Shown: piece by piece, positions 2,761 through 19,007 of the stretch
Numbering within the stretch: position 1 is the stretch's first letter
How the letters are laid out: every line of letters starts with the position of its first letter
Source of the DNA: Bacteroidia bacterium
GTDB taxonomy: Bacteria; Bacteroidota; Bacteroidia; Bacteroidales; UBA12481
Direction of reading: 5' to 3'
DNA: 20,300 nt
NCBI GenBank assembly: GCA_026391235.1
Contig: JAPLDV010000610.1
Span: 1 to 20,300 of the forward strand
The notes under the pieces: model-generated
What the model was told of the DNA's origin: nothing
The model's database searches: none
The model's input: only the letters and a program-made list of their open reading frames with translations
Program-made: the position numbers and the translations under genes

Positions 2761-2774
2761 AGACCAATTTCAAG

Positions 2775-5318
2775 ATGAAACGAATTACCTTTTTGGCCTT
2801 CGGGCTTTTGCTCTGCCGCCTGATTTTTGCAGATAATGTAGTAAATGTCCCGCAGACCATTACCCAGCCGAATGGAAAAATTATAAACTGCCTTGGATCA
2901 GGTGATGAATATTACCACAGGCTTCACGATGCTAATGGATATACAATCGTTTTGAATCCGAAGGACGGATATTTCTATTACGGGATCCGTTCCGGAGAAA
3001 CGGTTGTCCCATCAAAATATGTGGCCGGGACCGTGAATCCGGCCAATGTCGGACTCGAAAAAAATGCAATGATTTCCGAACAATTGTATGCCGAGCGCCG
3101 GGCAAAATTTCAGGCACCGCTTAAAGCCGTCATGGGAACTCCGACCAAGGGATTGGTTAACAGCCTGTGTATTTATATTTCTTTTGCCGATGACAGTGTC
3201 TTTACCCGCAATCGTGCCTATTTCAAAGAAATGTGGGAGGCAACCGATAAATCCTCGGTTCAGGATTATTTTAAGGAGATTTCCTATAATTTGCTTGATC
3301 TTGAAATTTATCACTTCCCGGTTAGTCCTGATACTATTACTGTTTCATACAAAGATATCTATCCCAGAAATTACTATTTACCGAAATCTGCCGCCAATCC
3401 TGAGGGATATGATGGAGATAATGCCGCCCGTGAACATTCCATGCTCAAAAGAGCTGTTGAATTTATCCAGAACCAGATACCTGCTGATGTTGATGTTGAC
3501 AGGAATAATGACGGAATAGTGGATAATATTTGTTTTGTCATTAAGGGAAACTCTTCAGCCTGGGCCGATCTGTTGTGGCCTCATGCCTGGGGGTTGTACT
3601 CATATGATGTAAGAGTGAAAGGCGCCAGGATCAATGGTTACTTCCTGACCATGGAGAATGGATTCGGCGCGGGTACCATGTGCCATGAACTGGGGCATGT
3701 TTTTGGAGCTCCTGATCTTTATCATTATTATGACAGCGGCAAAACAGGCCCAAGCGCTGTTGGCGGTTGGTGCCTGATGGACGCATCTGCCGATCCTCCG
3801 CAAAGCATCTGCGGATTTTTAAAATACAAATACAACCACTGGATATCAGATCTCCCAGAGATTACCGAATCCGGGGTGTATTCACTAAAGCCTTTAAGTC
3901 AACCCACTAATAATCTTTTTAAAATCAAATCCCCTTTCAGCCGCACGGAGTATTTTGTATTGGAATACCGCAAAAGAGCAGGCCGTTATGAATCGTCAGC
4001 TCCCGGAACCGGACTGGTTGTTTACCGTATCAATCCCGGTGCCGGAAGCGGCAATGCCGGCGGGCCTCCCGATGAGGTCTACGTTTATCGGCCGGGAGGA
4101 TCAATCACCGAAGTTGGCAGCCTCAGCAGTGCCGGAATGATTGCACCGAGCAGAACAGCCATCAATGACAAAACCGATCCTAACTCCTTTTTATGGAACA
4201 ATGGCGATAGCGGACCCGGAGGATTGGATCTGTTCAACGTTTCCGCAGCAAGGGATTCCATCACTTTTGAAGTAAGAATCGTCCACCTTTACCCGCCAAC
4301 CGAGCTGGAATATACTCCGGGTGCTGGTCAGGTCGACCTTACCTGGGTAGGCAGCATGGCCCAGGATCTCACTACTTATTACGTCTATCGTAATGGCATT
4401 CGTTACGCCGATACCCAATTCTCTGATTTCACTGATTATGATATAGTTGAAGGACAAGTATATACCTATTGGATCACCGCCTTTTATCAAGGTGGATATA
4501 ATGGTGAGTCGGTTAAAAGCAACGAGGTAACTTATGCTCCCAAAGGCATCCAGATCCTTCCATACAGAGAGGATTTTGAACAACCCGCGCATGGATGGAA
4601 AATCAAAGGTAACGTTGAGGGATTTCAATGGGGAGATGCGACCAGTCTCACCATGCAAACAATTAATACAACCAAATTCCTTGGGGCTAATTCCGTAGCT
4701 GCCGGTGTAAATACCTTGTGTTCAGATTATGCAATTACCCCGAGGATGAACTTTTATGGTAAAAACAAAGTTTACATGCATTTCGATTATTCATTAAAAA
4801 GATGGCAGCAACTCGATCACCTGAAAATATTTTTCCGCCGGTATCAAAATGAAAGCTGGGTTCCGGTTATCGATTTGCCCACCAGCGGAATCGGTGCCGG
4901 ATACAAATGGAAAAAATACAACCTTGAACTGCCGGCTGATTGTTATACAGGAGAGGCCCAGATCGGGTTCCGGTATGACGACGGTAATGATCTGGGTTAC
5001 GGTGCCGCCATCGACAACGTGGTGATCGACGAAATCGCCACATCAGGGGTCGAAACCAACCTCGATAACCTTGCCATAAATATTTACCCAAACCCTGCCG
5101 GTGACGAAACAACCCTTGATATTTCCGGCAATCCCGGCGGAGAATTATCATTGAAACTGATTAGTATCGATGGTAAGGTATTATGGTCGAAGATCCGCCA
5201 GAATCAGTCAGATGGCTTGGAAACCATAAATCTTAAGGGCCTTGCCAAAGGAATGTATTATGTTGTTGTTGAATCAGCAAACGAAGTTATTATCAAATCC
5301 CTCGTCAAGCAGAATTGA
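2775..5318 (+). CDS. Secreted M6-family (immune inhibitor A-like) metalloprotease with T9SS sorting domain
   Basis: This zinc metalloprotease has 847 residues. Residues 1-19 form a signal peptide. A propeptide-like segment with the M6-typical GSGDEYYHRLHDANGY stretch (41-56) follows. The catalytic domain spans roughly 125-500 and carries HELGHVFGAPD (304-314), an HExxHxxGxxD zinc motif, with a Met-turn-like GWCLMD (331-336). A FnIII-like module (~507-590) and a MAM/cleaved-adhesin-like jelly roll (~595-753, ending GYGAAIDN) come next. Residues ~766-847 are a type A C-terminal sorting domain (INIYPNPAG...), so export by the T9SS is expected. The gene lies 14 bp after the C10 protease gene and shares its accessory modules although the catalytic domains are unrelated. 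Its stop codon abuts a truncated uracil-DNA glycosylase in the same frame. Its own C-terminus looks complete. Confidence 0.93.
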   Translation: MKRITFLAFGLLLCRLIFADNVVNVPQTITQPNGKIINCLGSGDEYYHRLHDANGYTIVLNPKDGYFYYGIRSGETVVPSKYVAGTVNPANVGLEKNAMISEQLYAERRAKFQAPLKAVMGTPTKGLVNSLCIYISFADDSVFTRNRAYFKEMWEATDKSSVQDYFKEISYNLLDLEIYHFPVSPDTITVSYKDIYPRNYYLPKSAANPEGYDGDNAAREHSMLKRAVEFIQNQIPADVDVDRNNDGIVDNICFVIKGNSSAWADLLWPHAWGLYSYDVRVKGARINGYFLTMENGFGAGTMCHELGHVFGAPDLYHYYDSGKTGPSAVGGWCLMDASADPPQSICGFLKYKYNHWISDLPEITESGVYSLKPLSQPTNNLFKIKSPFSRTEYFVLEYRKRAGRYESSAPGTGLVVYRINPGAGSGNAGGPPDEVYVYRPGGSITEVGSLSSAGMIAPSRTAINDKTDPNSFLWNNGDSGPGGLDLFNVSAARDSITFEVRIVHLYPPTELEYTPGAGQVDLTWVGSMAQDLTTYYVYRNGIRYADTQFSDFTDYDIVEGQVYTYWITAFYQGGYNGESVKSNEVTYAPKGIQILPYREDFEQPAHGWKIKGNVEGFQWGDATSLTMQTINTTKFLGANSVAAGVNTLCSDYAITPRMNFYGKNKVYMHFDYSLKRWQQLDHLKIFFRRYQNESWVPVIDLPTSGIGAGYKWKKYNLELPADCYTGEAQIGFRYDDGNDLGYGAAIDNVVIDEIATSGVETNLDNLAINIYPNPAGDETTLDISGNPGGELSLKLISIDGKVLWSKIRQNQSDGLETINLKGLAKGMYYVVVESANEVIIKSLVKQN

Positions 5319-5750
5319 TTGAGAAGCAACGTTGGCAAGTCGGGCCAGCTGCTTGATAAAATACTTGGTGCAGCCGGCTTTTCCAGGCAGGAGAATGTGT
5401 ATATCGCCAATATAGTCAAGTGCCGCCCGCCGACCAACCGTGAACCATCTCCCGAAGAACGGTCCACCTGTTTGCCCTTTTTGCTTCTTCAGATTGAGCT
5501 CATTCAGCCCTCGATCATCATACTTTTGGGTTCCACGGCACTTAAAGGCTTGATCGATCCCGATGGAAAAATCACTCAGGTACGTGGTAAATGGATGGAA
5601 TGGAACAATATCCAGGTAATGCCAACCTACCACCCTTCCGCATTATTGCGCAATCCCGAACTTAAAAAAGAGGTATGGGAAGATATGAAGCTCGTTGTGC
5701 ATAAATACCGGGAGATTGTTGACCCGAAGCACCACTGTCAGTATTTGTAA
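5319..5750 (+). pseudogene. 5'-truncated family 4 uracil-DNA glycosylase
   Basis: The 143 codons match the C-terminal part of family 4 (Fe-S) uracil-DNA glycosylases, which remove uracil from DNA. Visible blocks are VGKSGQLLDKIL (5-16), YIANIVKCRPP with C35, C51 further on, GSTALKGL (71-78) and the active-site motif HPSALLR (115-121). The N-terminal ~60-100 residues of the family are absent: the first Fe-S cysteine pair and the GEAPG..ED uracil-binding motif. Homology begins within about five codons of the M6 stop codon, in the same frame. The only start is a TTG overlapping nothing recognisable, with no ribosome binding site. The protein would lack half of its Fe-S ligands and a catalytic motif, so it is read as a decapitated remnant. 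The alternative is an assembly join or a local deletion artefact. Confidence 0.8.
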
Positions 5751-6959: not shown

Positions 6960-7667
6960 TCAAAATAATTTCTTTAGAAAGTCTTCGAAGATCAGTGCGT
7001 TATCTAATGTGAATTCGCCGCTCCGCGACCGTCTGAATTCAGTAAGATGTGCTCCTGAACCCAACGCCAGACCCAAATCCCTGGCTATCGACCGGATGTA
7101 GGTACCCCTTGAACAAACGATTCGCAATCGTACATCCGGTGGTGAGTATTCAAGAAATTCGATCTCCCTGATCTGCACACGCTTTGATTCAAGTTCTTGA
7201 AATTCACCTCTTCTGGCCTTATCATACGCCCTCACCCCATCAGTTTTCTTTGCACTGTAAACCGGTGGAACCTGATCAATCTCTCCGGTCAGGTTTTTAA
7301 GAGCCGTAAAAATCATTTCACTCGTAATATGTTCGAATGGAAAAACTTCATCGATCTCCTTTTCCAGGTCGAAACCCGGGGTGGTGGCACCCAGACGAAT
7401 AGTAGCAAAATATTCTTTCTCCCCGGCCTGGAGTTCATCAATCCGTTTGGTAGCCTTACCGGTGGCAATGATCATCAGCCCGGTCGCCAGGGGATCCAGC
7501 GTACCGGCATGCCCGACTTTCAGTTTCTTCAGTCCATATCTCATCTGCAAGGCACCTCTGACCTTCTTAACCAGATAAAATGAGGTCCACTGATAAGGTT
7601 TATCGAAAATCAGAATCTGACCGTCAAGCCATTCCTGTCCGGGTATGATTTTATATTGGGTTTGCAT
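6960..7667 (-). CDS. truB: tRNA pseudouridine(55) synthase TruB
   Basis: TruB isomerises U55 in the T loop of tRNAs. The catalytic aspartate is D58 in GHAGTLDPLATG (52-63). Other family blocks are the N-terminal ILIFDKPYQWTSF (18-30), VPPVYSAKKTDGVRAYDKAR (133-152) and CSRGTYIRSIARDLG (183-197). At 235 residues it is shorter than the E. coli enzyme (about 314) because the C-terminal PUA domain is missing, which is usual in Bacteroidota. It lies 50 bp after uppP, a spacer mostly filled by a heptad-repeat hairpin, and 57 bp before queA. Confidence 0.97.
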   Translation of the reverse strand: MQTQYKIIPGQEWLDGQILIFDKPYQWTSFYLVKKVRGALQMRYGLKKLKVGHAGTLDPLATGLMIIATGKATKRIDELQAGEKEYFATIRLGATTPGFDLEKEIDEVFPFEHITSEMIFTALKNLTGEIDQVPPVYSAKKTDGVRAYDKARRGEFQELESKRVQIREIEFLEYSPPDVRLRIVCSRGTYIRSIARDLGLALGSGAHLTEFRRSRSGEFTLDNALIFEDFLKKLF

Positions 7668-7678
7668 ATGATTCTATA

Positions 7679-7719
7679 AGTGACAGGTGACAAGTGACGG
7701 TCACTTGTCACTTGTCACT
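7679..7719. repeat. Heptanucleotide inverted repeat (strong hairpin) between uppP and truB
   Basis: Left arm 7679-7697 and right arm 7701-7719 are 19 nt each, complementary at 18 of 19 positions, with a 3-nt loop CGG. Each arm is itself a 7-nt tandem repeat (AGTGACA, GGTGACA, AGTGA on the left; units of TCACTTG on the right). The right arm covers the uppP stop codon (7718-7720). No T-run follows on the minus strand. The structure could attenuate read-through into truB, stabilise the upstream mRNA, or be a passive repeat. It resembles the other heptad repeats near 19034, 19825 and 20206. Confidence 0.85.
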
Positions 7720-8524
7720 ATCTGAACAATCCGATACCGATTGCGATAAGTCCGATAACCAGGCAGTAAACCGCAAACCAGATCAATTTTCCCTTTTTAA
7801 CCAGGTTGATCATCCAGGTACAGGCAATCAATCCTGCGAAGAAAGCGGCTATAAAACCAATAGCCAGTGGTAGCATGGGAGTTGCGGAAGCAGTGGCAGA
7901 AGAAGTTGCTTGAGATTTCATAATTTCCATCAAATTGGCACCGATAACAGGTACCAAAACCATCAGGAAAGAAAATTGCGCAATCAGTTTTTTATCAATC
8001 CCGAGCAGCATGCCTGCAGCAATGGTGGAACCCGAGCGGCTGATGCCCGGCAGGGTTGCTATGGCCTGAACCACACCGATAATAAAGGCAGATCTGTAGG
8101 TAATGGGTTTATCAGAATTCCTGATTTTCACAAAATGGGTGAGAGCTAACAATGATGCCGTAATCAGAAGCATAAACCCAACAAACAATATGTTGCCCGT
8201 AAAAAAGCTCTCCACCCAGCTTTCAAGAAAAATGCCGACGAGCAAAACCGGAATCATGGAAACTATCAGCTTTAGGATATATTGCGTTTCATCGTTGAGC
8301 CGAAATTCAAAAGTGCCCATTAATAACCTCCGGATTTCCTTCCAGAATACCACCAGGGTTGCCAGTACCGTGGCTCCGTGAACGACTACCGTAAAAGTAA
8401 TATTACTCTCACCTTCAATACCCAGCAAGGCTTTCCCGAGCTCAAGATGTCCGGAACTACTCACGGGAAGGAATTCGGTAAAGCCCTGGACCAAACCGAG
8501 TAACAATGCCTGCAACCAGTTCAT
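7718..8524 (-). CDS. uppP: Undecaprenyl-diphosphatase UppP (BacA)
   Basis: This integral membrane phosphatase converts undecaprenyl diphosphate to the monophosphate carrier used for peptidoglycan and surface polysaccharides. The family signature LVQGFTEFLPVSSSGH (11-26) carries the catalytic glutamate (E17) and H26. The second signature, GISRSGSTIAAGMLLG (160-175), carries R163. The 268-residue length is normal, and the sequence is almost entirely hydrophobic, consistent with a polytopic protein. An odd Ser/Thr/Ala-rich stretch (~204-216) sits in a predicted loop. The gene starts 5 bp after the DUF3098 gene and belongs to the ftsX cluster. It could also serve the glycan pathway encoded to the right. 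Confidence 0.97.
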   Translation of the reverse strand: MNWLQALLLGLVQGFTEFLPVSSSGHLELGKALLGIEGESNITFTVVVHGATVLATLVVFWKEIRRLLMGTFEFRLNDETQYILKLIVSMIPVLLVGIFLESWVESFFTGNILFVGFMLLITASLLALTHFVKIRNSDKPITYRSAFIIGVVQAIATLPGISRSGSTIAAGMLLGIDKKLIAQFSFLMVLVPVIGANLMEIMKSQATSSATASATPMLPLAIGFIAAFFAGLIACTWMINLVKKGKLIWFAVYCLVIGLIAIGIGLFR

Positions 8525-11335: not shown

Positions 11336-12388
11336 TCAAGATATATTGCTCATGATCAAAGGCATGCCTCTTATCAAATCCATCTTTGCCTTTTTCCCCA
11401 GCACTTCTTTGTAGAATTTCGGATGTAATCCATATCCGGGCCGGATTGAGCGAACATTCCGTTCTGTTATCAATTCACCGGCTTGTATATCTTCAACAAC
11501 ATACAGGGATCGTGAAAACTCGCGACTTTTCTGCATTTTGTCGGTAAGAGAATAATCTATTGTCCCAACGGCAACTTCGGCTTCGCGCACGGCTTTTACC
11601 ATTGCCGTGAATTCGGCTTCGTTCAGCGAGAAGGAAGCATCGGGCCCGCCTATCGCATGGTCGAGAATAAAATGTTTCTCAATAACCCGGGCACCCAATA
11701 CAGTGGCTACTACCGGAACGGTGATGCCCATGGTATGGTCGGACAAGCCTGCAATTACACCAAACCGTTCAGCCAGATCGGGAATCATCGCCATATTAGC
11801 CTCTTCAACAGGAGCAGGGTAGCTCGAGGTACATTTCAGCAGGATAATTTGATCGTTACCCATACGCTTGCAGGCATCAATGGCTAATTCAATATCCTCC
11901 ATACCGGCAATGCCCGTAGAGATAATCACCGGCTTACCTTTTGAAGCCACATATTCAACCAACGGAATATCCGTTATCTCGAAAGAAGCTATTTTATAAG
12001 CCGGGGCGTTCAGTTTTTCCAGCAAGTCAACCGCGGTATTGTCGAATGGACTGCTGAAGCAAATCAACCCTTCGTTTTTTGCTGCAAGGAACAGGTCATT
12101 GTGCCATTCCCAGGGGGTATACGCCTCTTTGTACAGATCATACAGATACTTGCCGTCCCAGATAGTCCCCTGTTTCAATTTAAAGTCATCAGTTTTGCAA
12201 TCAATAGTGATGGTATCGGCTGTGTAGGTTTGGAGTTTAATGGCATCAGCCCCGGCGCGTTTAGCGGCCTTTATGGTATCAATCGCAGTCTTTAAACTTC
12301 CGTTATGGTTGGCCGAGAGTTCAGCAACGATAAAAACCGGACTTTGATTATCTATTTTGAATGTATCGATACACAAAGAAAGAGTCAT
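11336..12388 (-). CDS. pseI: Pseudaminic acid synthase PseI (NeuB family)
   Basis: PseI condenses 2,4-diacetamido-2,4,6-trideoxy-L-altrose (or an acyl variant) with phosphoenolpyruvate to give pseudaminic acid. The 350 residues contain a TIM-barrel NeuB domain (~15-280) with VAELSANHNGS (21-31), DAIKLQTYTADT (48-59) and the metal-binding histidines H218 in LSDHT and H239 in IEKHF. A C-terminal SAF (antifreeze-like) domain follows at ~292-350. The SANHNG and TPWEWH (91-96) blocks point to PseI rather than to sialic or legionaminic acid synthases. It is the last gene of the operon, 24 bp after the KAS III gene. Sampled GC (about 53% in 11641-11700) is higher than in the genes just upstream. Confidence 0.92.
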   Translation of the reverse strand: MTLSLCIDTFKIDNQSPVFIVAELSANHNGSLKTAIDTIKAAKRAGADAIKLQTYTADTITIDCKTDDFKLKQGTIWDGKYLYDLYKEAYTPWEWHNDLFLAAKNEGLICFSSPFDNTAVDLLEKLNAPAYKIASFEITDIPLVEYVASKGKPVIISTGIAGMEDIELAIDACKRMGNDQIILLKCTSSYPAPVEEANMAMIPDLAERFGVIAGLSDHTMGITVPVVATVLGARVIEKHFILDHAIGGPDASFSLNEAEFTAMVKAVREAEVAVGTIDYSLTDKMQKSREFSRSLYVVEDIQAGELITERNVRSIRPGYGLHPKFYKEVLGKKAKMDLIRGMPLIMSNIS

Positions 12389-12412: not shown

Positions 12413-13435
12413 TTATTCAACCTCAACAACAACAGCCCCCATAGACAATCCTACCCCAAAGCCCGCCAAAAGCACCTTATCTCCTTTTTGCAATCTGTTG
12501 TCATCTATGGCGCGCCGCATTGCTATAGGAATAGTTGAAGATACTGTATTGCCCCCATCTGATAAAGAAATAAAAAATTTCTCCTGTGGGATTTTACATC
12601 TTTTTCTGACGAAATCAAGCATATACTCATTGGCCTGATGAAAAATGAACATATCAACATCCTCTAATGATAAAGAATTTTCCTTAAGCACTCTATTGAT
12701 TAATGGCGGTATCTCGAAAGCGGTGAAATTAAAAATCTCTTTGCCATTCATATACAGATAATCATCATTGCTGACAAAATTCCCTTCTTCATCAATTAAA
12801 TCCTCATGCTTAACACAATTATGTCTTATGCCGCTGTTCCTGACAATTAAACTTTCATATCCGCTGCCGTCGGTTCCGTAACTCAAGTTGCTGATAGATG
12901 CATGAAAACAGCTACTCTCAGGTTCCGAAGTAATTAAAGTTGCAGCAGCTCCATCTCCAAACAGAGTTTTATTTGATTTGTCTTTGGGATGAATTAATTT
13001 GGTGTACGTTTCAGCAGTTACAAGTAATACGTTTTTTACCTGCCCAGTCTCTACTAAACCTTTAGCTAGGCCTAATCCATAAATAAATCCGGAACAGCCC
13101 AAATTAAAATCCAACGCACCACAGGTTTTAGGCAAACCAGCCTTGTTTTGCAAAATACATGCAGTAGTAGGTAAAAGATAATCCGGACTTTGCGTACAAA
13201 ACAAAAGAAAATCTATTTTACTTTTAGGAACCTGGTATTCATCAAAGAGTTTCTCAATCACAGTCAGGGCCATATCACTGGAAAATTCATTTCCTGCTGA
13301 CACATGACGTTGATATATACCTGTTTTTTGGGAAATTTTTTCAACAGACCACTCAGGATGTATTTGAGAGAGTTTCTCATTATCCAAAATTTCAATCGGC
13401 AAATAATAGGAAATCCCGTTAATATATGCTCTCAT
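12413..13435 (-). CDS. 3-oxoacyl-ACP synthase III-type condensing enzyme (KAS III / FabH-like)
   Basis: This 340-residue thiolase-fold protein has the full KAS III triad: C114 in NLGCSGFIYG, H266 in FIFHQANEYM and N296 in SDGGNTVSST. Typical FabH blocks such as KTGIYQRH (37-44) and GDGAAATLI (160-168) are present. Housekeeping FabH joins acetyl-CoA to malonyl-ACP. This copy has a longer stretch between Cys and His than E. coli FabH (152 against 132 residues), like pathway-specific homologues. It overlaps the upstream ACP gene by 4 bp (ATGA), which implies coupled translation. Lying between pseH and pseI, it probably makes or transfers an acyl group for the sugar rather than serving bulk fatty acid synthesis; that role is inferred. 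Confidence 0.88.
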   Translation of the reverse strand: MRAYINGISYYLPIEILDNEKLSQIHPEWSVEKISQKTGIYQRHVSAGNEFSSDMALTVIEKLFDEYQVPKSKIDFLLFCTQSPDYLLPTTACILQNKAGLPKTCGALDFNLGCSGFIYGLGLAKGLVETGQVKNVLLVTAETYTKLIHPKDKSNKTLFGDGAAATLITSEPESSCFHASISNLSYGTDGSGYESLIVRNSGIRHNCVKHEDLIDEEGNFVSNDDYLYMNGKEIFNFTAFEIPPLINRVLKENSLSLEDVDMFIFHQANEYMLDFVRKRCKIPQEKFFISLSDGGNTVSSTIPIAMRRAIDDNRLQKGDKVLLAGFGVGLSMGAVVVEVE

Positions 13436-13668
13436 GGCTTTGTCATTAAAATTACATAATCATACAATTCCCGTACTGTTTTCTTTGACTTGTAATCTGT
13501 TTCGGAAATATCAACCCCGTATTCATCCTTTAACATCACGATAATTGTCATACCGGTGAGAGAATCATACGACTCTATCTTTCTAAAATCAGAGTCAATT
13601 GTCAATTCTATCTCATTTGAATCAATAAATTGATTTTTGACATTTTCAATAAATGCCGATTCTTCCAT
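13432..13668 (-). CDS. Acyl carrier protein
   Basis: This 78-residue acidic protein has the length and helical pattern of an ACP. The phosphopantetheine attachment serine is S36 in YDSLTGM, in the DSL motif. The stretch MLKDEYGVDISETD (45-58) matches helix III of ACPs. It is not the housekeeping AcpP, whose sequence is far more conserved around DSLD. Its stop codon overlaps the start of the KAS III gene, so the two were clearly kept as a pair. It lies 12 bp after the pseH-like gene. The likely job is to carry the acyl group handled by KAS III; the acyl group itself is unknown. Confidence 0.88.
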   Translation of the reverse strand: MEESAFIENVKNQFIDSNEIELTIDSDFRKIESYDSLTGMTIIVMLKDEYGVDISETDYKSKKTVRELYDYVILMTKP

Positions 13669-13680
13669 TTCTATTTAATT

Positions 13681-14265
13681 TTAAATATTTGTTAGTGTTA
13701 GCTTCAGCAATCTTTCAATTTTTTGATCATTTACAATTTTATTATTAAATGTATCAACCGACAATTCTCTGTAGAAAAACTCAGTACTTTTTTTGTCTAT
13801 TATTTTAGTAACTGGTTTTTTTGAAAACCCAAATAAATCGTTAAAAGAATTCGCTCCTTTGTTTTTTACCGCTGCATACCCTTTTAAGAATTCCATACCA
13901 ACAATATTAAACAGGAAGTTCAGAGTGAATAAATAAAATTCGACACCAAGATTTGTTCCGTGTAAATCAGGTGCAAGGTAATATCCCCACTCGCCGGATT
14001 TATCATCGATATCAACTATGGATGAAACTCCGATGTCCTTATTTTCTCTTTTGACCAGCCAATATTTCTTTGTCGGATCATTTTTCAGCCCGTTAAGGAA
14101 TTTCAAATGATCCTCCCATTCAATGATATTTGTATTATACATCCATTGACGAATGCTCATGTGATTGCGCCATTGCAATACCGTTCGCTTTTCTTCATCC
14201 TTCATTTCAATAAAGTAGACGAACCTGTATAATTCACTACTAATTAACATGCTTAAAGATATCAT
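13681..14265 (-). CDS. pseH: PseH-like GNAT N-acyltransferase
   Basis: This 194-residue GNAT protein resembles PseH, which N-acetylates the 4-amino group of UDP-4-amino-4,6-dideoxy-L-AltNAc with acetyl-CoA. Blocks seen are LQWRNHMSIRQWMYN (30-44), EDHLKFLNGLKNDPTKKYWLV (51-71), IGVSSIVDID (77-86) and GEWGYYLAPDLHGTNLG (91-107), followed by NKGANSFNDLFGFSKK. The first ATG (14265) follows the pseG stop after 1 bp; M6 (14250) or M22 are other possible starts. The neighbouring ACP and KAS III genes raise the possibility that this enzyme takes an acyl group from ACP instead of acetyl-CoA. The gene is very AT-rich: 22% and 27% GC in the two 60-base lines from 13681. Confidence 0.85.
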   Translation of the reverse strand: MISLSMLISSELYRFVYFIEMKDEEKRTVLQWRNHMSIRQWMYNTNIIEWEDHLKFLNGLKNDPTKKYWLVKRENKDIGVSSIVDIDDKSGEWGYYLAPDLHGTNLGVEFYLFTLNFLFNIVGMEFLKGYAAVKNKGANSFNDLFGFSKKPVTKIIDKKSTEFFYRELSVDTFNNKIVNDQKIERLLKLTLTNI

Positions 14266-14266
14266 T

Positions 14267-15256
14267 TTAAATTGATTTAAAGAGTTCTAAGTAAAACTGA
14301 GGGCCTTTCCAAATAATTGCTTTTTGCTTTTGCACCATTTGGTTTCCATTAAGGCAAGATATTCTATGGAGGTGAAAGTTAAGCTTCTCGGAGTAATTAA
14401 TTAACATATTCTCACAGTTGAAGGCTAATCCCATCTCACAAATCGATTGAGCTGCTTCCTTCTGATTATCAACGTAAAACCCGGTAATTGCTGGTATACC
14501 AACTGCGATAAGCTCAAAAAGAATAGAACTGGAGGGTACAATTGCCAAGCTTGATTCATTAATTAATGAAACCATTTGTTTCGAATTCACATCCTGGTAG
14601 CTCACTACTATTTCATTGTCATTTATCAGCTCCTTCAAGCTTCTAAAATGACTGTAGGCAGAGCCTGTTACAATAATTACTTTTTTAAAGCGGTCAAAAG
14701 CCAGCACCACTCTCAAAGTGCTCTCAGTCAGGTTATAATAATCTGATCCGCCAAAGCAGATAAACACGCTCTCCATATTCTCAATAACACGCATTTTTGC
14801 AGTTTGCTCAAGAAAAGAGGGTCGTAACAATGCAAATTCAATACCCAAAGCAAATTGGGTGTAGGGTTGGGCTTTGTAATCCAGTGGTGTAATGCCAGGC
14901 GCATGGTTGATTATCAGGTCAGCTACAAATTCCATATTATGCTGGTCGTCAATGCAAACTAACTTGCAACCTTTGGCTTTGACTTGTTTTTGGAAGGCCA
15001 GGTTAAAATGATAGCCATCTAAGATCACGATTTGCTGGCTGTTTATTTGTTCTATAAACTGTGTTTCGTTTTCTATCTTAATAAGTTCAAAATTGTTTTC
15101 AACCAACTCCTTTCCGATTGATTCCGGAATTTCAATGCAAAAGAAGAGAATATCAAAATCGGTTTTAAGCATGTGCGCCAGTGCAGTGCATCTGACCAGG
15201 TGCCCCAGGCCTAATCGAAGGCTGCCATCAGCTCGAATGAATATTTTAGATTTCAT
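14267..15256 (-). CDS. pseG: UDP-2,4-diacetamido-2,4,6-trideoxy-beta-L-altropyranose hydrolase PseG
   Basis: PseG removes UDP from the nucleotide-linked diamino sugar to free the substrate for PseI. The 329-residue protein has the GT-B-like fold of the family. The N-terminal block IFIRADGSLRLGLGHLVRC (5-23) holds the catalytic-base histidine H19. A second nucleotide-binding block is VFICFGGSDYYNLT (164-177), and PSSSILFELIAVGIP (241-255) is the UDP-binding C-terminal motif. It overlaps the end of pseF by 11 bp and is 1 bp from pseH, indicating translational coupling. Confidence 0.92.
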   Translation of the reverse strand: MKSKIFIRADGSLRLGLGHLVRCTALAHMLKTDFDILFFCIEIPESIGKELVENNFELIKIENETQFIEQINSQQIVILDGYHFNLAFQKQVKAKGCKLVCIDDQHNMEFVADLIINHAPGITPLDYKAQPYTQFALGIEFALLRPSFLEQTAKMRVIENMESVFICFGGSDYYNLTESTLRVVLAFDRFKKVIIVTGSAYSHFRSLKELINDNEIVVSYQDVNSKQMVSLINESSLAIVPSSSILFELIAVGIPAITGFYVDNQKEAAQSICEMGLAFNCENMLINYSEKLNFHLHRISCLNGNQMVQKQKAIIWKGPQFYLELFKSI

Positions 15257-15935
15257 TTAAGAGTTTAAATTTCATTTCAGCCAGCTTCCAGTCCGTCGGG
15301 TTATCGATATCCTGCACTTCTTCTTCAGAAAGAATAATTGAGGCCGTGTTTCCTATCAAAGTGGTTTGTCCCAATTGTTTCATATTCATCCAGTACCATT
15401 GTCCTGCATCGTGGTAAACCTTTTTCAGATCCTGTGATCTGGAATTCTTGTATTCAGGCCAAATCATTTGCGTTTTTCCTTCATCATTAATCTCAACACC
15501 TCGCCAAACGGGGTAGCCAAAAGAAACTACAGGAAAAACACTATCATAGTTTTTTGCCAGTAAAAGATTCAGGCCTTTCTTTATAGATTCTATCCTGATA
15601 AGCGGAGCCGTTGGATAGATGCAGCATATTAAATCAAATTCCCGGTTCAGCTGATTTTTGTATACCGTAACAACTTCCTGTATTACTGCCATAGTGGAGG
15701 CAAAATCGTTTGAGGTATCAGTGCTGCGATAAAAAGGAACCATTGCGCCAAAATTAACGGCTACTTCAGCTATTTCAGTATCATCCGTTGAAACCATTAC
15801 TTCTTCAAACAAACCACTTTGCAAAGCAGTTTCAATAGAATAGGCCATTATTGGCTTACCAAGGAAATCCTTAACATTTTTACGCGGGATGCGTTTACTG
15901 CCGCCGCGCGCGGGGATAATTGCCAGGTTACGCAT
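15246..15935 (-). CDS. pseF: Pseudaminic acid cytidylyltransferase PseF
   Basis: PseF activates pseudaminic acid with CTP to CMP-Pse, the donor used by transferases. The family opening is MRNLAIIPARGGSKRIPRKN, with the nucleotide-binding ARGGSKRIPRKN loop. FLGKPIMAYSIETA, VSTDDTEIA, CIYPTAPLI and DAGQWYW follow, the last typical of PseF. The open frame continues upstream to a TTG at 15977, but the extra residues are unlike the family. ATG codons at 15944 and 15935 are better, and 15935 gives the canonical N-terminus. No Shine-Dalgarno sequence helps the choice. It overlaps pseG by 11 bp and is separated from the GT42-like gene by about 57 bp. Confidence 0.9.
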   Translation of the reverse strand: MRNLAIIPARGGSKRIPRKNVKDFLGKPIMAYSIETALQSGLFEEVMVSTDDTEIAEVAVNFGAMVPFYRSTDTSNDFASTMAVIQEVVTVYKNQLNREFDLICCIYPTAPLIRIESIKKGLNLLLAKNYDSVFPVVSFGYPVWRGVEINDEGKTQMIWPEYKNSRSQDLKKVYHDAGQWYWMNMKQLGQTTLIGNTASIILSEEEVQDIDNPTDWKLAEMKFKLLNEI

Positions 15936-15992
15936 AAAACTCATGAATTGTTTCGGTTCATACCAACTGATTTTCAAAAAATAAATCTACGG

Positions 15993-16856
15993 TCAGATTT
16001 TTTGAAATGCATCAATAAAAGAAGCTTCTGTCAAGTTAAATATTTTAACATCTTTACGAACAGCCAGGTCATTAATTAATTCATAACCCTTAAACAGGTT
16101 CGACCATCCCAGAAATAACTGATGCATTGTTGCAGGATCCCTACCACCGGATTTTGTATACATTGGCTTATGAATAGCAAGGTTATCGGAAAAATGTTTT
16201 TGCGCAACATAAACCTTAGAGTCACTTTTAACGACAATTTCCTGGTGCCAGGAATGATCAACGCCGGTTAAATAGATTTTCTTATAACCCAAGTTAATGG
16301 CAAAAACCAGTGATGGTATTATGACATTTGGAGCTCTGGGCATCCCAAGCCGATGTGAAAGACAATAACGTATGAAACCCGGGAATCCGTCTATTGAAAT
16401 TGCATTAAAGAAAACAAGTTTAATGCAATTATTATTTAACAAAGGCGAGTAGAATTTACTCTTTCTAAAATTAAATGGAGCAAATAAGAAAATTTCCCAG
16501 GTTGTTTCTTTAATTACCTTTTTAAATAATTCATCAATTTTATTAAAAATATCTCCGGTTTCAGATTCCCAAAAGTTGGGATCATAAATAACATATATCT
16601 TTGGCTTTATTTTCGAATACAAATCTGATTCGGCAAAAAAATTCACACATATTTTATCAAAATCCGATGAAGAAATATCAATTTTTTCCAGGTCCTTTAA
16701 TAATGATGGCCCATTCCCCATAATAATACAATCACTTAAAATTCTTTCTTTGGGATATTTTGTTTTTCTCGAAAACAATACTACCACCGGGATAAATATC
16801 ATTGTTGAAATTATATTGTTGAAAGCCTCCTTCAACTTTTTGGTAATTTTATGCAT
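15993..16856 (-). CDS. GT42/DUF115-like protein, putative pseudaminyl (nonulosonate) transferase
   Basis: This protein of 287 residues (from the ATG) is not a standard pse enzyme. An N-terminal hydrophobic stretch (~15-28) is followed by CIIMGNGPSLLKDLEKID (43-60) and later by FAINLGYKKIYLTGVDHSWH (185-204). The pattern GNGPSL ... LGYKxIYLxGxD is shared by GT42 sialyltransferases of the Cst type and by DUF115/Maf-like proteins, which use CMP-nonulosonates. A transferase for CMP-Pse is therefore the best guess; the assignment rests on motifs remembered from those families. A TTG at 16868 extends the frame by four codons, but the ATG at 16856 overlaps the pseC stop by 8 bp and is preferred. The gene is very AT-rich: 20% GC in 16501-16560 and 32% in 16681-16740. 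Confidence 0.65.
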   Translation of the reverse strand: MHKITKKLKEAFNNIISTMIFIPVVVLFSRKTKYPKERILSDCIIMGNGPSLLKDLEKIDISSSDFDKICVNFFAESDLYSKIKPKIYVIYDPNFWESETGDIFNKIDELFKKVIKETTWEIFLFAPFNFRKSKFYSPLLNNNCIKLVFFNAISIDGFPGFIRYCLSHRLGMPRAPNVIIPSLVFAINLGYKKIYLTGVDHSWHQEIVVKSDSKVYVAQKHFSDNLAIHKPMYTKSGGRDPATMHQLFLGWSNLFKGYELINDLAVRKDVKIFNLTEASFIDAFQKI

Positions 16857-18000
16857 AGAAATTTTCAATTGTTTTTATCACGAATTCCTGCTCGATGTTT
16901 GAAAGAGACGGGTAAATCGGTAAACTCAGGCAATGATTGTAGTATTTCTCTGCGATGGGCAAATCTCCCTCTTTCCAACCAAATTGCCGGTAATAGGGCA
17001 TCAGGTGGACAGGTATATAATGAACCTGGGCGTAGATGTTTTGTTCGCGTAAATACTCATACAGTGCTTTACGCTCAATAAACTCAACAACATATAAATG
17101 ATAGGCGTGACCTTTTATGACTCCTGCCTGCCTGATGATGTAACTTTTCCCTGAAAAAGCCTTTTCATATACTGCAGCAATCTCCCATCTTCGTTTCAGA
17201 CCGGCATCTGAGCGCTTTAACTGACTTTTGCCAAGTGCTGCCTGGAAATCGGTTAATCTGTAGTTAAAGCCAAGTTCTTGCATTTCGTAGTACCACAAAC
17301 CATGATTAAATTGTAACAATTCGGGAATCTGCTGAATTCCATGAGTTCGCAGGTTGCGCAATCTATGATATAGTTTCTCATTATTTGTAGTTACCATCCC
17401 ACCTTCACCTGCTGCAATATGCTTTACCGGATGAAAGGAGAAAATGGCCAGATCGGCATAATTTCCATTTCCACAATTCTGTTTCTGGCCGCATTTATCG
17501 GTAAAATAACCTCCGGGTGCATGACAGGCATCTTCGATGATCCAAAGGCCAAATTCATCAGCAAGCTTCCTGACTTCTTCCAGATTAACCGGATAACCGG
17601 TAAAATCAACCGGAATAATTCCCTGGTAGGTTCCTTTTTTAGATGAATAGAGCAAATCCCTTACTTTATTAAGATCCAACAGGTAGGTGTCGGGATCTAT
17701 GTCTGCAAAAACCACCTCCCCGCCACAGTAACGAACACAATTGGCGGTTGCTGCAAAGGTTATCGGGGTGGTAATGATTTTATCCCCTGGCCTGACGTTC
17801 AATGCAAGTGCACTTAAATGTAACGCGGCTGTTCCATTGGATACTGCCACTGCATATCTGCAACCAATATATTGAGCAAATGCAACCTCGAATTCAGCAA
17901 TTTCAGGGCCCTGTGTCAGGTAGTCGGACTTCAGAACCTCTATCACAGCCTGAATATCTTCATCAGTAATATGTTGGCGTCCGTAGGGTATTTTTTTCAT
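16849..18000 (-). CDS. pseC: UDP-4-amino-4,6-dideoxy-N-acetyl-beta-L-altrosamine transaminase PseC
   Basis: PseC is a PLP-dependent DegT/DnrJ/EryC1-type aminotransferase that converts the 4-keto sugar made by PseB to the 4-amino sugar. The 383 residues open with MKKIPYGRQHITDEDI, typical of PseC. Further blocks are AVSNGTAALHLSALAL (52-67), ITTPITFAATANCVRYCGG (76-94) and IIEDACHAPGG (154-164). The PLP lysine is K193 in SFHPVKHIAAGEGG. The start overlaps the pseB stop by 4 bp (ATGA), indicating coupled translation. Confidence 0.94.
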   Translation of the reverse strand: MKKIPYGRQHITDEDIQAVIEVLKSDYLTQGPEIAEFEVAFAQYIGCRYAVAVSNGTAALHLSALALNVRPGDKIITTPITFAATANCVRYCGGEVVFADIDPDTYLLDLNKVRDLLYSSKKGTYQGIIPVDFTGYPVNLEEVRKLADEFGLWIIEDACHAPGGYFTDKCGQKQNCGNGNYADLAIFSFHPVKHIAAGEGGMVTTNNEKLYHRLRNLRTHGIQQIPELLQFNHGLWYYEMQELGFNYRLTDFQAALGKSQLKRSDAGLKRRWEIAAVYEKAFSGKSYIIRQAGVIKGHAYHLYVVEFIERKALYEYLREQNIYAQVHYIPVHLMPYYRQFGWKEGDLPIAEKYYNHCLSLPIYPSLSNIEQEFVIKTIENFYA

Positions 18001-19007
18001 TCGATTGGTTTAAAATCAGGATCGACAAATCGCTTGATTTTTTCACGCAGGGTATCTACTGTTTCCCATTCAGTATTAGTACCTGAGTTGTATTTAAATC
18101 CTATGGGAACTTCCCAGCCATTGAAATGATTTATGTATTTCTGTTTATTGGCATTGGAAGGAAGGATAGCGAAATATTTATCAAATTCGATGGTATTATA
18201 TGAATCACTTTCCGTGATCATTTCTTCATGTAATTTTTCGCCCGGACGAATTCCAATCTCTTCGAGAATAGCATTGGGTGCAATTGCTTTGGCTACGGTT
18301 TCGATATTATAGGAAGGAATCTTGGGGACAAAGATTTCACCACCAATAGCATTTTCAATAGCCCAAAGTACCATCTCCACTCCGTCTTCCAATGATATGT
18401 TGAAACGGGTCATTTCCCTGTTTGTAATGGGCAAAACACCTGTCTTTGCCTTTTCGCGGAAAAATGGAATCACCGAACCTCTTGATCCCATTACATTTCC
18501 ATATCTAACCGCCGAAAACCTAAGATCTCTTTTTCCCTTGATATTATTGGCAGCAATAAATAATTTATCGGAAACAAGTTTTGTGGCGCCGTATAAATTG
18601 ATTGGAGCAGCTGCCTTATCGGTAGAAAGCGCTATAACAACTTTTATACCAGTTGAAAGTGCAGCATCAATCACATTCTGTGCACCACCGATATTGGTTT
18701 TGACGAATTCATCGGGATTATATTCTGCTGCGGGTACCTGTTTCAAGGCTGCAGCATGGATAATAACGTCAATACCATCACAGGCTCTTTTAAAACGTGC
18801 ACCATCACGTACATCTCCAATAAAAAAACGCACTTGCCGATATTTGTTTTCCGGGTAAAGCTGAGCCATCTCGAATTGTTTCAATTCATCACGGGAAAAT
18901 ATGACAAGGCGTTTAACGTCGGGGTAACGCTCCAGAATTACTTTAGTGAACATTTTCCCGAAAGATCCGGTACCGCCGGTTATGAGGATTGATTTGTCGT
19001 TTAGCAT
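17997..19007 (-). CDS. pseB: UDP-N-acetylglucosamine 4,6-dehydratase (inverting) PseB
   Basis: PseB performs the first step of pseudaminic acid synthesis: 4,6-dehydration and C5 inversion of UDP-GlcNAc. The 336-residue SDR protein shows the NADP-binding GGTGSFG (11-17) and IGDVRD (63-68). The catalytic STDKAA (128-133, with D130/K131) and YGATK (139-143, with Y139/K143) are present. RYGNVMGSRGSVIPFF and GIRPGEKLHEEMI are further family blocks. It is the first gene of the operon. The promoter must lie in 19008-19184, but no TAnnTTTG box is seen there on the minus strand. Confidence 0.95.
   Translation of the reverse strand: MLNDKSILITGGTGSFGKMFTKVILERYPDVKRLVIFSRDELKQFEMAQLYPENKYRQVRFFIGDVRDGARFKRACDGIDVIIHAAALKQVPAAEYNPDEFVKTNIGGAQNVIDAALSTGIKVVIALSTDKAAAPINLYGATKLVSDKLFIAANNIKGKRDLRFSAVRYGNVMGSRGSVIPFFREKAKTGVLPITNREMTRFNISLEDGVEMVLWAIENAIGGEIFVPKIPSYNIETVAKAIAPNAILEEIGIRPGEKLHEEMITESDSYNTIEFDKYFAILPSNANKQKYINHFNGWEVPIGFKYNSGTNTEWETVDTLREKIKRFVDPDFKPIE

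What the first reader, a model, noticed from the sequence alone, without database searches (positions are those of the whole stretch)
12413..14265. ACP and KAS III genes inserted between pseH and pseI in a pseudaminic acid operon
The six canonical pse genes are all present, yet a dedicated acyl carrier protein (S36 in DSL) and a KAS III-like enzyme with an intact Cys-His-Asn triad sit between pseH and pseI, translationally coupled to each other. PseH normally uses acetyl-CoA. Pseudaminic acids with non-acetyl N-acyl groups, such as 3-hydroxybutyryl, are known from other bacteria. The inference is that the ACP carries a condensed acyl chain (for example acetoacetyl, reducible to 3-hydroxybutyryl) which the PseH-like protein, or KAS III acting as an acyltransferase, places on the sugar. 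This would be an ACP-dependent branch of nonulosonic acid synthesis.
Basis: partly seen in the sequence, partly recalled or inferred. Interest (0 to 1): 0.75.

Follow-up and report, generated by a model that had tools for sequence, protein, structure and literature searches.

The report
Acyl-carrier module in pseudaminic acid operon
A pseudaminic acid (bacterial sialic-acid-like sugar) operon carries its own acyl carrier protein and chain-making enzyme next to an unusual PseH, which suggests that the sugar is capped with a longer, carrier-delivered acyl group instead of plain acetate.

Summary
pseB, C, F, G, H and I lie on one strand, with a divergent ACP (Ser36) and a KASIII (Cys114/His266/Asn296) between pseH and pseI. 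It recurs: pse operons with ACP and KASIII next to a GNAT occur in L002, L013 and L024, and a legionaminic-type operon has ACP-SDR-KASIII next to its NeuD-type transferase (L037). Related cassettes sit beside other acyltransferase folds (44 of 79 loci have one), so the pair looks like a portable acyl-donor module, and KASIII is probably not the transferase. In the window's PseH subfamily (12 sequences) pantetheine contacts of H. pylori PseH are kept, the pyrophosphate-binding Lys and the P-loop glycine are gone, and the acyl pocket is changed, as acyl-ACP use would predict. Against: ACP-linked PseHs of L013 and L168 keep glycine and Lys; 12 ACP-KASIII pairs on equal-length contigs have no such PseH; no ketoreductase is local, so the acyl group is inferred. 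Rare: 0 of 55 sampled pse loci have KASIII, 1 an ACP with FkbH. Nearest precedent: predicted wfp genes of Flavobacterium psychrophilum.

The parts
17997..19007 (-). pseB, UDP-GlcNAc 4,6-dehydratase (inverting)
   Evidence: TIGR03589 505.5 bits
16849..18000 (-). pseC aminotransferase
   Evidence: TIGR03588 474 bits
15993..16868 (-). MptE-like protein, possible nonulosonate transferase
   Evidence: PF01973 exactly at the gathering score; function inferred
15246..15977 (-). pseF CMP-Pse cytidylyltransferase
   Evidence: TIGR03584 290.8 bits
14267..15256 (-). pseG UDP-sugar hydrolase
   Evidence: TIGR03590 189.6 bits
13681..14265 (-). pseH variant, GNAT N-acyltransferase; proposed to take acyl-ACP
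   Evidence: TIGR03585 114.7 bits; AF2 model pLDDT 90.8, best PDB match 4ri1 PseH, TMq 0.77, 29% identity
13939..13962 (-). altered P-loop region of PseH, residues 102-109 HGTNLGVE
   Evidence: alignments
13432..13668 (-). dedicated acyl carrier protein; Ser36 at 13561-13563
   Evidence: PF00550 36.2 bits; below the cut-offs of the 7 NCBIfam ACP models listed
12413..13435 (-). KASIII; Cys114, His266, Asn296
   Evidence: PF08545/PF08541; NF006829 275.4 bits over cut-off, TIGR00747 fabH 253.4 under cut-off 292.1
11336..12388 (-). pseI pseudaminic acid synthase
   Evidence: TIGR03586 518.5 bits
9808..11310 (+). polysaccharide biosynthesis (Wzx-like) protein, facing the operon
   Evidence: PF01943 33.3 bits

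Best explanation
The ACP and KASIII form a dedicated acyl-donor module for this operon's PseH. Shown: gene content, order, overlap, recurrence, intact sequence motifs, and a PseH subfamily that keeps the pantetheine-arm contacts but lacks the CoA-pyrophosphate lysine and P-loop glycine and has a changed acyl pocket. Inferred: the ACP is pantetheinylated at Ser36 and charged with malonate; KASIII condenses a short starter with malonyl-ACP to give acetoacetyl-ACP (or a homologue); a ketoreductase from outside this window (for example housekeeping FabG) may reduce it to 3-hydroxybutyryl-ACP; PseH moves the acyl group from ACP to the 4-amino group of UDP-4-amino-4,6-dideoxy-AltNAc; PseG, PseI and PseF then give a CMP-Pse with a non-acetyl N-acyl at C7.
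For: Recurrence: L002 pseH-KASIII-ACP-KASIII-pseI (KASIII 65% and PseH 44% identity; ACP 63%), L013 pseG-pseH-ACP-KASIII-KASIII-pseI, L024 pseI-GNAT-ACP-KASIII, its GNAT under the PseH cut-off. Of 10 other PseH homologues, 2 share the longest-contig length with a KASIII homologue (87579; 5316) and 1 with an ACP homologue (1991) (equal length is indirect). Related modules beside other amino-sugar N-acyltransferases: GNAT-ACP-KASIII with FdtA-cluster and DegT-cluster genes (L003, L041, L048), NeuD-type in a legionaminic-type operon (L037). FkbH-ACP between pseH and pseI in L168. PseH: in 12 of 12 the pantetheine contacts Trp38, Met39, Tyr94, Asn131, Ala134 are kept, Lys133 is absent, the P-loop position is Asn (10) or Ser (2); acyl-pocket Leu91 is Trp in 11 and Leu125 is Gly in 11. 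PseH is the only acyltransferase that the scans found among the ten window proteins scanned. Housekeeping FabH and ACP lie elsewhere in the three pse genomes G001-G003. A 3-hydroxybutyramido nonulosonic acid is reported from Flexibacter maritimus.
Against: No ketoreductase of the cassette type beside the pair in the window or in L013; L002 has an SDR (7252-8037) upstream, but a similar-looking gene is in L174, which has no KASIII; 63 of 79 related loci have an SDR-cluster gene. L013 and L168 PseHs keep the loop glycine and Lys133 despite an adjacent ACP; ACP-less L129 also lacks Lys133 and also has Trp and Gly at the Leu91 and Leu125 positions. Tyr138 is His, Ile or Thr in the other GNATs tabulated, so its change to Asn/Ser is not specific. 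H. pylori PseH itself has an atypical P-loop. Four of the ten UDP-sugar side chains named for H. pylori PseH are changed. 12 of 32 ACP homologues share contig length with a KASIII homologue, none of these 12 with a PseH homologue, and KASIII L001, 69% identical, sits with AMP-ligase and MBOAT genes and no pse. In the tree the pse label is no more clustered than in 78 of 500 shuffles. 0 of 55 sampled pse loci have KASIII. The window's own genome is not held, so remote genes could not be searched.
Confidence: 0.68

Rival explanations
1. PseH uses acetyl-CoA as usual, and the ACP/KASIII product acylates another position or another sugar of the same glycan through an acyltransferase outside the window.
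For: Relatives of the pair occur beside MBOAT-cluster genes (5 of 79 loci), and L001 has AMP-ligase-ACP-KASIII-ACP-MBOAT. L013's PseH keeps the loop glycine and Lys133. 12 linked ACP-KASIII pairs have no PseH of this subfamily.
Against: Placement beside pseH or a PseH-like GNAT in several pse operons; pyrophosphate and acyl sites changed in the window's PseH subfamily; no other acyltransferase found among the ten window proteins scanned.
Confidence: 0.17
2. KASIII itself transfers the acyl group to the sugar (as KASIII-like acyltransferases of antibiotic pathways do, recalled), and PseH is dispensable or acetylates.
For: The KASIII fold can do acyl transfer (recalled); the local pair lacks a reductase.
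Against: Cys-His-Asn condensation triad intact; related pairs co-occur with at least four different acyltransferase types, so a separate transferase seems to be the rule; pseH is kept.
Confidence: 0.05
3. The pair makes another carrier-bound acyl group (branched or longer), so the N-acyl is neither acetoacetyl nor 3-hydroxybutyryl.
For: Donor modules vary: tandem KASIII (L002, L013), Rieske-cluster cassettes (8 of 79 loci), FkbH-ACP (L168).
Against: The window has one KASIII and no modifying enzyme seen, which fits a single condensation.
Confidence: 0.08
4. The pair is a passenger brought by transfer and has no role in Pse synthesis.
For: Related cassettes occur in many kinds of loci.
Against: Four-nucleotide overlap, short gaps, intact motifs and recurrence beside pseH and pseI in other genomes.
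Confidence: 0.02

Closest known systems
Flavobacterium psychrophilum wfpC-wfpG (O-polysaccharide, 3,5-dihydroxyhexanoyl on Qui2NAc4N; PMC6519341, passages read)
   Same: Dedicated ACP plus KAS enzymes in a surface-sugar locus, predicted to feed an N-acyltransferase acting on the 4-amino group of a UDP-2,4-diamino sugar.
   Different: Acyltransferase there is a PglD homologue (hexapeptide fold), with two KAS and a reductase; here a PseH-type GNAT in the Pse pathway with one KASIII and no reductase. The gene roles there are predicted, too. Its sequences were not compared here.
Aeromonas group II flagellin glycosylation islands (PMC7874193, passages read)
   Same: ACP and fatty-acid-type genes lie with pse genes.
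   Different: ACP, 3-oxoacyl-ACP reductase, AMP-dependent synthetase, luxE and luxC; the passages name no KASIII; authors suggest a liposugar component.
PseH of H. pylori and C. jejuni (4ri1, 4xpl; PMC4363471, passages read)
   Same: Fold, pantetheine contacts, and six of ten UDP-sugar side chains (one of them in 10 of 12).
   Different: Those bind acetyl-CoA; the window subfamily lacks Lys133 and Tyr138, has a loop 2-3 residues longer, and mostly Trp, Gly and Tyr in place of Leu91, Leu125 and Glu126.
FkbH + ACP module in L168, and Pse5Am7Gra of Tannerella forsythia (PMC6388019, passages read)
   Same: Carrier protein between pseH and pseI; a non-acetyl C7 acyl group on Pse is known in Bacteroidota.
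   Different: Donor enzyme is FkbH-domain, not KASIII; that FkbH makes glyceroyl-ACP is recalled, and no link between L168 and T. forsythia was tested.
Flexibacter maritimus O-polysaccharide nonulosonic acid (review PMC3210612, passages read)
   Same: Nonulosonic acid with a 3-hydroxybutyramido group in Bacteroidota.
   Different: The review places it at N7 in one sentence and N5 in another; has an 8-amino group; genes not examined here.

Membership tests
Pseudaminic acid pathway | pseB, C, H, G, I, F all present | tested here: met
   six NCBIfam equivalogs over cut-off
PseH (TIGR03585) | score over curated cut-off | tested here: met
   114.7 vs 93.1 bits
PseH (TIGR03585) | UDP-sugar side-chain contacts of H. 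pylori PseH (ten named in PMC4363471) | tested here: inconclusive
   Arg30, His49, Tyr94, Met39, Phe52 kept in 12 of 12, Tyr40 in 10 of 12; Thr80, Lys81, Tyr90, Glu126 changed; the first three of these four also differ in C. jejuni PseH
PseH (TIGR03585) | pantetheine-arm contacts | tested here: met
   Trp38, Met39, Tyr94, Asn131, Ala134 in 12 of 12; Asn34 varies
GNAT acetyl-CoA enzymes | P-loop Gln/Arg-x-x-Gly-x-Gly/Ala (PMC4964394) | tested here: not met
   HGTNLG in the window; Asn/Ser at the glycine in 12 of 12; the review calls H. pylori PseH atypical too
PseH (TIGR03585) | acetyl-CoA as donor | not testable with these tools
   needs an assay
KASIII (FabH) | Cys-His-Asn triad | tested here: met
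   C114, H266, N296 invariant in 22 sequences
Housekeeping FabH (TIGR00747) | score over cut-off | tested here: not met
   253.4 vs 292.1 bits
Housekeeping AcpP | score over NCBIfam cut-offs | tested here: not met
   best equivalog score 25.1 vs 84; DSL serine present
wfp-type acyl module (F. psychrophilum) | ACP + KAS beside an amino-sugar N-acyltransferase | tested here: met
wfp-type acyl module (F. psychrophilum) | 3-ketoacyl-ACP reductase in the cassette | tested here: not met
   none among the operon genes scanned
wfp-type acyl module (F. psychrophilum) | PglD-like acyltransferase | tested here: not met
   GNAT PseH instead

The most novel reading that the evidence does not exclude
A PseH lineage has switched donor from acetyl-CoA to a dedicated acyl-ACP, making an ACP-dependent GNAT N-acyltransferase of nonulosonic acid synthesis; the same portable ACP/KASIII module plugs into Pse, Leg, 3-amino and bacillosamine-type pathways with whatever N-acyltransferase fold is present.
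Probability: 0.5. Interest if true: 0.65.

Novelty: new variant of a known kind. Interest (0 to 1): 0.52.

Why it matters
In the passages read here, no paper shows the enzymes that put 3-hydroxybutyryl or glyceroyl groups on nonulosonic acids. If the reading is true, a two-gene signature (ACP + KASIII beside pseH or a NeuD-type gene) would predict longer N-acyl Pse/Leg from sequence, give an enzymatic route to such sugars, and provide a case of a GNAT changing its donor from CoA to a carrier protein.

Tried and rejected
Literature: 10 searches. Among the papers listed I saw none on KASIII+ACP in a Pse pathway, but six listings were capped (20 of 90, 20 of 49, 20 of 119, 10 of 16, 20 of 2,873 and 15 of 47 papers) and only open-licence PMC papers are held, so this is not proof of absence.

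PseH subfamily in whole genomes: alignment A3 at E up to 1e-20 gave 2 of 395 genomes of the order of G001: G001 itself and G402 (L174: PseH over the TIGR03585 cut-off, 119 bits, glycine and Lys133 kept, no ACP or KASIII found). None in 393 genomes of the order of G004 (no positive control there), and only G001 in 397 genomes of its family at E up to 1e-30. Only the best candidates of a first look were scored. The subfamily is rare, so strict co-occurrence statistics were not possible. TIGR03585 over cut-off: 3 of 395 genomes: G001, the centre, with KASIII/ACP; G367 with FkbH/ACP; G211 with neither.

Considered and weakened: 'loss of the P-loop proves ACP use' (L013 and L168 keep it); 'loss of catalytic Tyr138 is specific' (His, Ile or Thr in the other GNATs tabulated); 'all UDP-sugar contacts are kept' (four of ten are not). 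The KASIII model was made but not searched against the PDB, as sequence already gives 3gwa.

Dropped rows: L033 had no KASIII in the pruned ORF set, so 79 of 80 loci are counted; 19 Flavobacterium/Chryseobacterium loci were left out of the tree; rows identical in the tabulated columns are shown once. Clusters were named from few scanned members (hexapeptide, SDR, MBOAT, FdtA, Rieske: one scanned, plus NeuD/SDR members). Cluster C15 (6 of 79 loci; one member scanned, no Pfam match) is not counted as an acyltransferase.

Full report
Observation. On the minus strand the window holds pseB, pseC, an MptE-like gene, pseF, pseG, pseH, ACP, KASIII and pseI. All six pse products pass their NCBIfam equivalog cut-offs. 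ACP and KASIII overlap by 4 nt (13432-13435), and gaps to pseH and pseI are 12 and 24 nt. The ACP has Asp35-Ser36-Leu37 (sequence) and falls far below the cut-offs of the NCBIfam ACP models it matches; the KASIII is under the fabH cut-off but over the broader NF006829 one. Its Cys114, His266 and Asn296 are invariant in an alignment of 22 sequences.

Is it a one-off? A scan of genome contigs with a KASIII alignment kept the best 80 of at least 577 loci. Three of the 80 have a PseI-type pse operon with the pair: L002 (Flavobacterium MAG: pseH-KASIII-ACP-KASIII-pseI; the first KASIII and the ACP read as one open frame, whose KASIII end departs from its relatives, so a frameshift or assembly error is possible), L013 (Chitinophagaceae: pseG-pseH-ACP-KASIII-KASIII-pseI) and L024 (Sediminibacterium MAG: pseI-GNAT-ACP-KASIII-Rieske cluster-SDR-KASIII; this GNAT scores 51 bits, under the PseH cut-off of 93.1). 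L002's ACP is 63% identical to the window's. In the protein collection, PseH homologues P0122, P0126 and P0123 share the length of their longest contig with KASIII P0002, KASIII P0066 and ACP P0136 respectively: 3 of 10, the window's own left out; this is indirect evidence of linkage. On the other side, 12 of 32 ACP homologues share a contig length with a KASIII homologue and none of these 12 with a PseH homologue, so the pair often lives without this PseH. In a tree of 98 KASIII sequences the pse label needs 4 changes, at least 3 by well-supported branches, which may be one gain and two losses; 78 of 500 shuffles need as few, and the bootstrap had not settled. So the label changed several times on the tree, and the pse-linked sequences are not one clade.

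How common? PseI over its cut-off is found in 56 of 395 sampled genomes of the phylum of G001. Apart from G001 itself I took neighbourhoods of all 55 others (up to about 9 kb each side, some cut by contig ends, and a few without recognisable pseB or pseC). With my own HMMs on ORFs of 60 aa or more, KASIII is in 0 of 55 and an ACP in 1 of 55. That one, L168, has pseH-(methylmalonyl-CoA-epimerase-like, below cut-off)-FkbH-ACP-pseI. So the KASIII version is rare, but another carrier-protein module sits between pseH and pseI elsewhere. Classical PseH (TIGR03585 over cut-off) is itself rare: 3 of 395 genomes, of which two have an ACP beside it, one of them the centre G001. Counting only PseHs over the cut-off in genomes not chosen for KASIII (L168, L129, L174), 1 of 3 has an ACP.

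What else lives beside this pair? In 79 KASIII loci (one of 80 dropped), the same operon-like run has an ACP in 62, an SDR-cluster gene in 63, a hexapeptide-cluster gene in 31, a GNAT of cluster C21 in 4, an MBOAT-cluster gene in 5, a PseH or PseH-like GNAT in 3 and an AAC(3)-like transferase in 1; 44 of 79 have at least one of these acyltransferases. Of the other 35, 14 are Chryseobacterium loci with a hexapeptide-cluster gene next to KASIII on the opposite strand. Clusters were named from few scanned members. GNAT-ACP-KASIII with FdtA-cluster and DegT-cluster genes occurs in L003, L041 and L048; these GNATs show no GxG after the GSW strand (sequences; L041 also). In L037 (Chitinophaga) legB-legC-ACP-SDR-KASIII-neuD-type-neuB-neuC follow one another, with the LegB, LegC, NeuD, NeuB and NeuC models over cut-off: the same kind of donor module in an operon of legionaminic type.

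The PseH. Its AF2 model (mean pLDDT 90.8) matches H. pylori PseH best in the PDB, C. jejuni PseH next. Contacts are taken from the H. pylori structure paper (PMC4363471, passages) and tabulated for 12 members of the window's subfamily. Pantetheine arm: Trp38, Met39, Tyr94, Asn131 and Ala134 are kept in 12 of 12 (Asn34 varies). CoA pyrophosphate: Lys133 is absent in 12 of 12 (Arg once); the position of the central P-loop glycine of many other Bacteroidota GNATs is Asn in 10 and Ser in 2; against H. pylori and C. jejuni PseH the loop is 2-3 residues longer. Acyl pocket: Leu91 is Trp in 11, Leu125 is Gly in 11, Glu126 is Tyr or Phe in 11. General acid: Tyr138 is Asn in 10 and Ser in 2. UDP-sugar side chains: of ten named, five are kept in 12 of 12, Tyr40 in 10, and Thr80, Lys81, Tyr90 and Glu126 are changed, the first three of which differ in C. 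jejuni PseH as well. Keeping the pantetheine contacts while losing the pyrophosphate ones is what a change from CoA to acyl-ACP would predict. Against over-reading: L013 and L168 PseHs, also next to an ACP, keep the glycine and Lys133; ACP-less L129 lacks Lys133 and has Trp and Gly in the acyl pocket; Tyr138 is His, Ile or Thr in the other GNATs tabulated; a review calls the H. pylori P-loop atypical (PMC4964394, passages). So the change fits a CoA-to-ACP switch for this subfamily but does not prove it. ACP-less L174, a PseH over the cut-off, keeps the glycine and Lys133.

Dedicated, not housekeeping. In G001, G002 and G003 (the genomes of L002, L013, L024) FabH and ACP over their curated cut-offs lie elsewhere, and the pse-linked KASIIIs score below cut-off. 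The window's own genome is not held, so this could not be checked there.

Mechanism. [quoted passage not shown] Shown: genes, motifs, recurrence, family contexts. Inferred: every catalytic step, and the identity of the acyl group. Chemical precedents: a 3-hydroxybutyramido nonulosonic acid in Flexibacter maritimus (PMC3210612, passages; N7 in one sentence, N5 in another) and Pse5Am7Gra in Tannerella forsythia (PMC6388019, passages). Genetic precedent: the predicted wfpC-G pathway of F. psychrophilum (PMC6519341, passages). Aeromonas group II islands carry ACP and other fatty-acid-type genes with pse genes (PMC7874193, passages).

Verdict. A real, functional-looking, rare but recurrent variant: a known kind of acyl-donor module plugged into Pse synthesis, with a PseH that appears rebuilt on its donor side.

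Noticed in passing
window 15993-16868: MptE-like (PF01973) gene between pseC and pseF, related to proteins near pse genes in L119, L124 and L168 (30-37% identity); PF01973 is also in Maf flagellin glycosylation proteins (recalled), so it may transfer the nonulosonic acid.
   Followed up: partly
window 5319-5750: Uracil-DNA-glycosylase-like reading frame (named from memory) that starts right after the stop codon of the preceding ORF and seems to lack its N-terminal part.
   Followed up: partly
window 184-5318: Two large secreted-protease-like ORFs in tandem with C-terminal sorting-type domains, by reading alone; suggests a Bacteroidota host.
   Followed up: no
L149, L150, L151, L156, L160, L166: Pse loci with PseC or PseB and PseI in which no PseG was found by BLASTP with the window's PseG; where examined they carry a GNAT of about 185 aa or a 337-338-aa protein with GNAT-like parts.
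   Followed up: no
L004-L010, L024: A gene of cluster C10 (one member, L007, scanned: Rieske-type oxygenase) inside KASIII-SDR-KASIII cassettes, 8 of 79 loci: possible oxidation of a carrier-bound acyl group.
   Followed up: partly
L001 8276-13458: AMP-ligase, ACP, KASIII (69% identical to the window's), an unknown 249-aa protein, a second ACP and an MBOAT in a row.
   Followed up: partly
L002 9998-11284: KASIII and ACP in one continuous open frame; either a fusion or a frameshift in the assembly.
   Followed up: partly
L020 7954-18228: Four KASIII and two ACP genes in 10 kb.
   Followed up: no
L101, L105, L109, L121, L125, L126, L130, L131, L132, L137, L138: Pse loci in which the PseH-family HMM matches ORFs of about 470-530 aa that also match PseG or begin like it: apparent PseG-GNAT fusions instead of a separate PseH.
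   Followed up: no
L117 10246-11928, L127 7487-9166: About 560-aa carbamoyltransferase-like protein (by reading alone) directly beside pseI, a possible further Pse modification.
   Followed up: no
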